Of a stretch of DNA of 64,000 bases, positions 48,771 to 51,700 are shown in pieces. The DNA comes from Anisakis pegreffii. Its lineage: Eukaryota > Nematoda > Chromadorea > Rhabditida > Anisakidae. Positions within the stretch are counted from its first letter, which is position 1, and each line of letters begins with the position of its first letter. The stretch is taken from NCBI GenBank assembly GCA_035041965.1, contig JAPYMA010000571.1, positions 1-64,000 on the forward strand. The letters are read 5' to 3'. The position numbers and the translations under genes were made by a program. A model generated the notes under the pieces. The model was not told where the DNA came from and did no database searches. It worked only from the letters and a program-made list of their open reading frames with translations.

Positions 48771-51700
48771 TCACGTAAAAAAGTGTTTTTTCATATCATT
48801 TTTCGGTGGATTAGACTTAAAGTTTGGAAAACCAATCAAAAAATATACCGACGATTTAACATCATCATTAGCGGGTGATACAATCGGTGTTATGCCAACG
48901 CTAGGCGAACGAATTCCCAACGCTGTCTCCTTGACCAACGAATTCAGACTGAACAAATTGAACATGTCGATTATTTGTAACGATTCATTTTTCTTCGCAG
49001 CAACTTTCTGTAAAATTCATTGATACGTTGGTTGAAAAGCTCCACTGATTATACCATATCATCGAGATTCTCATTGATATCATTATCTCATTTCAATATT
49101 ATTCGTACTGCTAAACTGTTTGCTATGATTACTGCTGCAGATATCATCAGTTATCGTTATCAGCATTATTCCGATCGTTAGCAAATCATGACAAATGGAT
49201 TCAAGAGGAAGACGTATGGATTCAAGGATATACCCGAATAGTGGGTATGCGAAGCAGTATGGCTGCATATCGATCACATGCATCAACAGGCTCGTAATGC
49301 ATGCAAATGTGACGATACAGTGCTGTCAGAAGTTTCTTTTGTTCAGCCGCAACGTTACGTTGACTGGCCGAATCAAGTCCATCCGTATCTGCAATCAAAA
49401 TGCATTCATTAGGGAAACCTTTCATTAAACATCACACTGACTGAATATATTATCGAATTCAAAAGGAGATTGATACGAGTTATTTCGATACACAGTAATG
49501 TAATAACCCCATAAGTCTGTGCTCCTAAACTAAGGCAATATCGCCCTCTAACAAACGTAAACGTCATTGAGAGGAGGTTTCTCTTTTGCGCGGAACAGGC
49601 GAAATTACATAAAATTATCACAGTGTTCTCTTCAGTCTTGAAAGTGGCTATTGGAAACCGCTTCTAAACTTAATTGGGAAGGTGTGATTTGGCCATGATT
49701 ATAGCCGGGTGGGCAATTAATGTAGAACTGGTTGTGAAGCAGTGGTCTGATTTTGAGCAAAAATGCAAACGTGAAGCAAGGCTTTGAAGAAGATAGACTG
49801 AATATAGCACATAATTGTAGACTCACAATCAACTTCAACGAATCGCTATCGCAACTAACCCATTTTAAATCATCATATGAGAAGAGATACAGATACCTGG
49901 ATCAAAAAACATAACTGCTTGAAGGGTAGCGAATTCGGTCGTTGAAATATTGAGACGTCGAAATGGTTTCATCACATAATCGATCACGGCAGCCATGACG
50001 GGCGTTAGACCACTGAGACTGCAATTAATCACATGTCACATGTCAGGCATTTTCCGTTGAAAAAAGAGCAAAATTTGGGTTGGAAGTTTAACATGTGAGC
50101 ATAAGGTCAATTTTAAATTTTACTTTATTGACAAGGACACGACGTGGAGTCAAAAAGCAACATATGTGTCTTTCGCCGTTTGATAAAGTTCGCGAATGAT
50201 GATACGAATCCAATAGAACCAAGTGGGAATTGAATGCGTTTCACCGGTGTAATCATATGAAGTAGGAGGAAATAATTGATAAATGTGTAGTGAATTGATA
50301 AATGAATAAACCTTCCAACAGTAGGATAATGTGCAACAGGTGGAACATCAACCAACGAGCGAACACCCAGTTCATTCGAATGACCGTCACGAATCAATTC
50401 AGGATCAAAGAATGTGTGCATATTTGAGGATTGCTGTTGGTGGAGATGCTGTTTATGGGGTGATTGATGTGGATTTATTAGTGGTGAATGAGCCGATGTG
50501 GAAAGGCTTTGGAAACTGGTATCAGTGCTTTTCGAGCAACTTTTCAATGTATCTATGCTTCGACCAGTTGCGAACGATGGACTATTACTATCAGAATTTG
50601 TGGAAATAAGTAGTTGTGACGGTAGTAACTGAGAGCTTAAATTAGACTTGTCGTCGTCTGGAGGTGATGACAGTGCTATTGTTGGTGCCGTTATATTGTT
50701 GCCGCAGCAGCATGAATCTGTTGATGAGGCTGTTGGCGCCGCCAACAGATTCTTACAGCTGCATTTCGGCTCCTCCACCGATGCGTCCAAATCACTGCAA
50801 TTTTAACAGCAATGTAATCATGAGCAATTTTTCATCTGATAATATCCATTGATTGGACGGTTCAAAACGTTTGACTATATGGTAAGTTTTGATTTGTGCT
50901 ATATGAATTTGTAAGAATACAATAGATACAATGAGGACGTAGATTGCAACTTTTGAAATTGCTGACAATGAGGTTTTGGATACTTTGCGGGTACTGAATT
51001 TATGCTTGTGTCTTTCAGTGGATGCAATCGGAATCTGAATATTCTGAAGGAGAAAACAAACTCTGACGGCAATAAATTCTCTTCGTTTGAATGTTTCGTG
51101 AACGCAAATCCATCCGATGGAATAATTTCATCACTGATATGTTCAGGTGTTCGAAACGCTTCGCACATTATCATATACGAACTTGCATGATTGGTTATCA
51201 GTGCCACCTTCAACGAGAACAAAAACTATGTTTTATTCAACAAATCCACCTTCATTTCGGTAATATGACCGACCCTTCTAATCACCAAAACATCAACGAT
51301 TCATTTTTGTCGTGTCATACTGGGAGAATTGTCTCATTATCTAATTTTTTTCTTATTTTTCTCAATATTTTGAATTTGGATCTCCTAATAATTCAATTTC
51401 TGAACAAGGAGAATTCAGTAACGTTTCGAAGCTAACATACTGCTACGGTTCATAAGCAGCCAAGCAGCTAACTTTATCGGAGTTTGGTAGATTTCGAAAA
51501 ACTGGAAACGTTTTTGCCCAATCAATATATAACGCAATGATACGTGACCGCCAAAAAGGCATCTTGTGTTGATCTTTGCCGGCTTTCGGTGCTGCGATAG
51601 GATCGGTGATCTGAAATACAAGACTAGATACGGTGACGAAATGAGATTTTTGAACATTTCTTCAAAGTAAGCTCTACGTTTCATTATTTCTTTGCGATAG

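What the first reader, a model, noticed from the sequence alone, without database searches (positions are those of the whole stretch)
50312..50794. Skippable 161-residue low-complexity exon inside a nuclear receptor ligand-binding domain
The 483-nt exon is symmetric in phase and sits between the helix-5 exon (51207-50984) and the helix-7 exon (50018-49897) of an otherwise clean HNF4-type receptor. Both the included (663 aa) and skipped (502 aa) forms keep frame. The insert is Cys-, Ser-, Gln- and His-rich (SCCCG, KQHLHQQQ) and ends in a more ordered stretch (FFDPELIRDG). Insertion of a large disordered segment in the middle of the LBD is not the usual receptor layout and could act as an isoform switch for ligand response or partner binding.
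Basis: partly seen in the sequence, partly recalled or inferred. Interest (0 to 1): 0.8.

Follow-up and report, generated by a model that had tools for sequence, protein, structure and literature searches.

The report
Ancient loop exon in NHR-47
The odd exon is a real coding exon of a roundworm gene-control receptor, NHR-47: most relatives carry a long, probably floppy loop at the same place with a short conserved motif in it, and in this worm the loop is more likely a fixed part of the protein than an on/off switch.

Summary
The exon at 50794-50312 (minus strand) is real: 483 nt, phase 2/2, in nhr-47 of an Anisakis simplex-like nematode. The insert lies before helix 7 of an HNF4-type ligand-binding domain. 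It is no private oddity: 58 of 68 related records with both anchors have a long segment there; 38 of 38 other nematode receptors measured have none. Its first 124 residues are Ser-rich and poorly conserved. Its last 37 (MHTFFDPELIRDG...GVRSLVDVPP...YPTVGS) are conserved; the pattern [MLVI]-H-x-[FIVL]-F occurs in 50 of 58 inserts, against 79 of 11600 shuffles. AlphaFold2 leaves the Ascaris insert disordered. Skipped forms are annotated in relatives, twice beside an included form of the same species; the seven that are nhr-47 keep an intact 27-residue turn. In the window that turn has decayed (18 bits against 55-72), which argues that inclusion is now the rule here. No RNA data were available. 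Best reading: a clade-wide disordered docking loop, formerly skippable, now probably constitutive in Anisakis.

The parts
50312..50794 (-). insert exon of nhr-47, 483 nt, phase 2/2, adds 161 residues (307-467 of the model)
   Evidence: open frame and splice sites; same sequence in A. simplex P0001 but for 5 of 161 residues
50422..50793 (-). N-terminal 124 residues of the insert: Ser-rich, poorly conserved
   Evidence: 17 identities with the 82-residue Ascaris counterpart; composition; the Ascaris counterpart has pLDDT<50
50312..50421 (-). C-terminal 37 residues of the insert: conserved segment MHTFFDPELIRDGHSNELGVRSLVDVPPVAHYPTVGS; core motif MHTFF at 50421-50407
   Evidence: 30 identities with Ascaris, 21-30 with the other listed hits except P0001 (37); core motif in 50 of 58 inserts
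51062..51207 (-). exon for helices 4/5 plus the S1/S2 turn; donor at 51062 (reader: 50984)
   Evidence: P0001 junction LLPSD|DLDASV; donor scan; spacing in short relatives
51062..51141 (-). 27-residue turn HISDEIIPSDGFAFTKHSNEENLLPSD, decayed relative to relatives
   Evidence: 18.0 bits against leave-one-out 55.4-72.0 for 11 intact sequences; 9 of 27 identical to Ascaris while the flanking core is 97-98% identical
   Evidence: not in P0001
49897..50018 (-). exon for helices 7-8 (LSGLTPVMAAVIDYV...)
   Evidence: splice sites and translation; missing from the P0001 gene model
51473..51610 (-). exon before helix 4/5 (ITDPIAAPKAG...MPFWRSRIIALYIDWAK), phase 0
49234..49388 (-). exon for helices 9-10
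   Evidence: genome match
48849..49007 (-). exon for helices 10/11 and the helix-12 stretch NSLVKETALG
   Evidence: aligned with the end of the HNF4-alpha LBD
54679..54776 (-). first DNA-binding-domain exon (TLCVVCEDLATGNHYSVPSCNGCKTFFRRAIV)
   Evidence: zf-C4 match E 2.1e-26 on the spliced DBD
55661..55682 (-). start exon MAEKLPPG
   Evidence: same start in Ascaris P0003

Best explanation
The exon encodes a long disordered loop that the NHR-47 lineage gained between the S1/S2 turn and helix 7 of the LBD. The helical core folds around it. Most of the loop is a free spacer; the conserved end (core [MLVI]-H-x-[FIVL]-F) acts as a linear docking motif for a partner protein or for the receptor itself. 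The layout without insert is ancestral, and some relatives still appear to make it by skipping the exon. In Anisakis the turn needed by the skipped form has decayed, so the exon is most likely included in all or nearly all transcripts and works as a fixed part of the receptor. Shown: exon, frame, position, conservation, motif, decay of the turn; predicted in Ascaris: disorder. Inferred: docking role, ancestry of the short layout, and constitutive use.
For: Gene is nhr-47: best hits P0001-P0003; LBD nearest solved structures are HNF4-alpha (with a query from which I had left out the insert). Long segment in 58 of 68 related records, none in 38 of 38 other nematode receptors measured. Conserved 37-residue end, 30 identities with Ascaris P0003 and Panagrolaimus P0019. 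Motif in 50 of 58 inserts against 79 of 11600 shuffles. The motif profile finds 11 of 13 named strongylid inserts, 0 of 200 of their own shuffles reaching the score. Insert pLDDT<50 in the Ascaris model while LBD helices reach 90 or more. Decayed turn, 18 bits. 10 of 10 short nhr-47 'lgn' contigs covering the region include an insert.
Against: Skip forms are annotated in close kin: Parascaris P0002 and, further off, Gongylonema P0055. Both donors around the insert are weak (-1.6 and -0.33), as in alternative exons, though one more of the nine donors scored has -1.07 (frequencies from memory). The turn is decayed but not gone (18 bits; the next lower record has 1.1). An intact turn is no mark of skipping by itself: Ascaris, Toxocara, S. 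hermaphroditum, four Pristionchus records and P0004 have it with an insert. AlphaFold2 docks the motif nowhere. 8 of 58 inserts lack the motif as written; the best of all scored shuffles (9.8) exceeds some strongylid scores (7.3-9.6), and C. elegans does not stand out (4 of 200). That 'lgn' contigs are transcripts is my inference.
Confidence: 0.6

Rival explanations
1. Regulated isoform switch in this worm: skipping restores a compact HNF4-like LBD, inclusion changes ligand response or partners.
For: Frame-neutral exon; skip junction LLPSD|LSGLTPV gives the 27-residue spacing of the 10 short relatives; both forms annotated in Parascaris and S. carpocapsae; weak donors on both sides.
Against: Turn decayed in Anisakis; short nhr-47 contigs of relatives include the insert, 10 of 10; the included partners of both pairs are odd models: P0017 is frame-shifted in the helix-5 stretch and P0010 breaks off inside the DNA-binding domain and resumes in the hinge.
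Confidence: 0.22
2. Passive spacer: the loop is tolerated because it is on the surface; the conserved end only closes the loop onto helix 7.
For: First 124 residues poorly conserved; disorder predicted throughout the Ascaris insert; the conserved end adjoins helix 7.
Against: The MHxFF core is kept in strongylids and Caenorhabditis although the stretch between it and helix 7 differs there, which a mere closing strand would not need.
Confidence: 0.15
3. Gene-model artefact: the segment is never in mRNA.
For: No Anisakis transcript was seen; P0001 is a gene model with an obvious fault (helix 7-8 exon missing).
Against: Conserved protein sequence across many separate assemblies, among them contigs hardly longer than the frame, such as P0035 (480 codons in 1582 nt) and P0015 (512 codons in 1767 nt).
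Confidence: 0.02

Closest known systems
NHR-47 orthologues (Ascaris P0003, Haemonchus P0012, C. elegans P0045)
   Same: Same gene and same site of insertion; 37-residue end shared with Ascaris, Panagrolaimus, Meloidogyne and others, MHxFF core shared with C. elegans and strongylids.
   Different: In the window the first part of the insert is longer than in Ascaris (124 against 82 residues) and barely alignable; strongylids and Caenorhabditis carry an EYGxLPADYG-type block before MHxFF and lack GVRSxVDVPP after it.
HNF4-alpha (NR2A) ligand-binding domain
   Same: Best solved-structure match by sequence (6cht_A, E 6.2e-22).
   Different: HNF4-alpha has no segment matching the insert at this place, nor have 38 of 38 other nematode receptors measured.
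Human CAR splice variants CAR2 and CAR3 (works like, not a member)
   Same: Short insertions in the LBD made by alternative splicing; reported as ligand-activated with low basal activity (passages of PMC7692647) or as cytoplasmic and inactive in hepatocytes (passages of PMC6277922).
   Different: Changes of only three and five residues (PMC6277922), a different receptor, both forms known as transcripts; here 161 residues and no transcript shown.

Membership tests
NHR-47 (HNF4-class nuclear receptor) | C4 zinc-finger DNA-binding domain | tested here: met
   PF00105 E 2.1e-26 on the spliced DBD
NHR-47 (HNF4-class nuclear receptor) | ligand-binding domain | tested here: met
   PF00104 E 3.4e-26; HNF4-alpha chains best in the PDB by sequence; query without the insert
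NHR-47 (HNF4-class nuclear receptor) | closer to NHR-47 than to other nematode receptors, one locus in the genome | tested here: met
   Hits named nhr-47 lead; from P0081 on the list is at 31-35% except the nhr-47 fragments P0099 and P0108; strong LBD matches only at this locus, the rest 1.3e-6 or weaker (counts are lower bounds)
NHR-47 (HNF4-class nuclear receptor) | helix-12 (AF-2) stretch retained | tested here: met
   NSLVKETALG aligned with NLLQEMLLG of HNF4-alpha; that it activates is not shown
NHR-47 (HNF4-class nuclear receptor) | binds a ligand | not testable with these tools
   no ligand of NHR-47 known to me
alternative cassette exon | skipping and inclusion both keep frame | tested here: met
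alternative cassette exon | both mRNAs exist in this species | not testable with these tools
   no RNA reads available
alternative cassette exon | both forms shown in a relative | tested here: inconclusive
   Records of both forms in Parascaris (P0002/P0010) and S. carpocapsae (P0005/P0017), but they are models and P0010 and P0017 are faulty elsewhere
CAR2/CAR3-type LBD splice insertion | inserted form has altered ligand response | not testable with these tools
   needs reporter assays

The most novel reading that the evidence does not exclude
NHR-47 began as a normal ligand-type receptor with an optional loop exon whose hydrophobic-H-x-hydrophobic-F motif mimics a coregulator box and can occupy the receptor's own coactivator groove or a partner's. 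Where the loop became fixed, the pocket-lining S1/S2 turn lost its constraint and decayed, turning a ligand-gated receptor into a loop-gated one. Anisakis is caught part-way through that change (turn at 18 bits, between about 1 and 55-72).
Probability: 0.13. Interest if true: 0.7.

Novelty: new variant of a known kind. Interest (0 to 1): 0.4.

Why it matters
A nuclear receptor whose LBD is broken by a long disordered loop with a conserved motif, paired with decay of a pocket-lining turn in lineages where the loop seems fixed, would be a natural experiment on how ligand gating is lost. NHR-47 is little studied as far as my searches show, and C. elegans carries the motif (MHNFF), so the idea can be tested in a laboratory strain.

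Tried and rejected

Rows dropped before counts: 124 proteins were held; one search used the 68 in which both sequence anchors were found. Left out, among others, are P0001, P0017, P0030, P0032, P0065, P0069, P0070, P0073 and P0080, which are nhr-47 with an anchor missing or altered, and the other receptors and DBD-only fragments. The 68 are records, not species, and the ten short ones include three diverged sequences of Strongyloides type. One search covered P0081-P0120 (40): 39 gave a value, one of which (P0099) is itself nhr-47 with an insert, and P0108 (Globodera, nhr-47 type) gave none. One search listed 120 of 214 matches. The database shows one record per 90% cluster, so hidden isoforms are possible.

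Full report
What the window is. The window lies in a 122.7-Mb genome of 1740 contigs. The receptor on its minus strand is nhr-47: the best of 214 matches (120 listed) is an Anisakis simplex protein, P0001, followed by nhr-47 of Parascaris and Ascaris. The spliced DBD and LBD match zf-C4 and Hormone_recep, and the nearest solved LBDs by sequence are HNF4-alpha; the LBD query of both calls was a trial join without the insert. Thirteen exons from 55682 to 48849 give 612 residues with the insert and 451 without; the last coding exon is not resolved.

The exon. The 483-nt exon at 50794-50312 begins after aattgcag and ends before gtttat; it splits a codon at both ends in phase 2, so both forms keep frame. 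Its open frame is the second longest in the window and its GC content is higher than that of the flanking introns. P0001 has the same insert with 5 of 161 residues different, all in the first part, and 0 of 27 differences in the turn before it. P0001 lacks the helix 7-8 exon, which I take for a gene-model fault.

A correction. P0001 joins LLPSD directly to DLDASV, which puts the donor at 51062. With that donor the skipped form has 27 residues between FRTPE and LSGLTPV, as in the 10 short relatives. Among eight phase-compatible donors 51062 scores best (-1.6 against -2.12 for 50984), by a matrix whose frequencies I supplied from memory.

Who has it. Of 68 related records with both anchors, 58 have a long segment at this place and 10 have the 27-residue turn alone. 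The short ones are Parascaris P0002, S. carpocapsae P0005, Acrobeloides P0007, Plectus P0022, Gongylonema P0055, Parastrongyloides P0033, Strongyloides P0036 and three diverged sequences of Strongyloides type, P0066, P0068 and P0077. Other nematode receptors of the list have no insert: 38 of 38 measured give -5 to -2 residues relative to the skip form, and many show a stretch like the turn, such as DTIVFPDGAYF or DKIVFQNGAFI. I infer that the layout without insert is the older one and that the insert belongs to the NHR-47 lineage.

What is conserved in it. The first 124 residues align with only 17 identities to the 82 in Ascaris. The last 37 share 30 identities with Ascaris and 21-30 with the other listed hits of this type, P0001 apart. 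Strongylid and Caenorhabditis inserts lack GVRSxVDVPP but keep MHTFF or MHNFF. A profile of 29 motif sequences finds 11 of 13 named strongylid inserts with 0 of 200 of their own shuffles reaching the score; the two Angiostrongylus models (P0034, P0079) have no match; the best of all scored shuffles (9.8) exceeds the lowest strongylid scores; Caenorhabditis elegans alone does not stand out (4 of 200). The pattern [MLVI]-H-x-[FIVL]-F is in 50 of 58 long inserts, once in each, and in 79 of 11600 shuffled ones. The pattern was chosen after seeing the sequences and the records are not independent, so the figure describes and does not test. Missing: P0008, P0009, P0026, P0031, P0034, P0039, P0044, P0079; of these P0009 and P0026 read MHEFL and P0044 IHNFL.

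Inclusion or skipping. For inclusion: ten 'lgn' contigs of 1.6-3.9 kb class as nhr-47 and cover this region, and all ten include an insert; I take them for transcript assemblies, which no call states, and for the longer ones this is unsure. P0077, also lgn and of the diverged type, has none. For skipping: Parascaris and S. carpocapsae each have both forms among the records, but P0017 is frame-shifted in the helix-5 stretch and P0010 is broken in the DNA-binding domain, so neither pair is firm. Decay of the turn speaks on Anisakis itself. A profile of 11 intact turns scores left-out members at 55.4-72.0 bits; the window and P0001 score 18.0; the next lower record scores 1.1. In Anisakis 9 of 27 turn residues match Ascaris although the flanking core is 97-98% identical; Plectus, whose core before the turn is 85% identical to Ascaris, matches it at 17 of 27. 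The seven nhr-47 skip forms have intact turns; the three diverged Strongyloides-type sequences score 34-36. The rule is one-sided: Ascaris, Toxocara, S. hermaphroditum, four Pristionchus records and P0004 have an intact turn with an insert, and no skip form of theirs was seen. The simplest reading is that the compact form no longer matters much in Anisakis.

How it may work. The insert is a tether with a conserved end. Its core has the spacing of coregulator boxes (two hydrophobic residues three and four places after a first; recalled), so docking to a coactivator groove, its own or a partner's, is a fair guess and no more. AlphaFold2 gives it no confident place. The test whether the turn orders itself only when the insert is gone failed to discriminate.

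Literature. Human CAR2 and CAR3 show that even small spliced insertions in an LBD change behaviour (passages of PMC7692647 and PMC6277922). For nhr-47 I saw: no RNAi phenotype in C. elegans and usually none in Heterorhabditis, 12% and 3% sterile in two trials (passages of PMC2014770); raised expression with nanoplastics and resistance on RNAi (passages of PMC11209457). The searches named under Tried and rejected showed no description of the insert in the open-licence library.

Verdict. A real, old, conserved loop exon; one wrong boundary; an isoform switch not shown and, in this species, rather unlikely.

Noticed in passing
51062-51141 (-): The 27-residue turn next to the insert has decayed in Anisakis (18 bits) while the flanking LBD is 97-98% identical to Ascaris.
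   Followed up: yes
P0001 (protein record), window 50018-49897: The public A. simplex gene model omits the helix 7-8 exon and reads a piece of intron instead.
   Followed up: partly
rows: No filarial worm appears among the listed nhr-47-like proteins (Brugia and Cercopithifilaria only with a more distant type, 32-33%), though other spirurids (Gongylonema, Gnathostoma) do; possible loss. One search listed 120 of 214.
   Followed up: no
P0004 (lgn, 602 aa): Carries some 22 further residues (RGDDDGICRQPGCFDAIPIGSMS) between the insert and helix 7; no match in the window beyond the shared SLSGLTP. Perhaps another splice choice.
   Followed up: partly
inserts of P0011-P0016, P0021, P0023, P0045 and others: A second conserved block, of the type EYGxLPADYGxxIPxDYGxPxxGxEG, precedes the MHxFF motif in strongylid, Caenorhabditis and Pristionchus records and not in the GVRSxVDVPP type.
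   Followed up: partly
window 25659-26099 (-): Open frame with a D-isomer 2-hydroxyacid dehydrogenase NAD-binding domain (PF02826, E 1.9e-26).
   Followed up: no
window 27275-28507 (-): Longest open frame of the window (411 codons), weak match to RYYR-CCHC below its cut-off.
   Followed up: no
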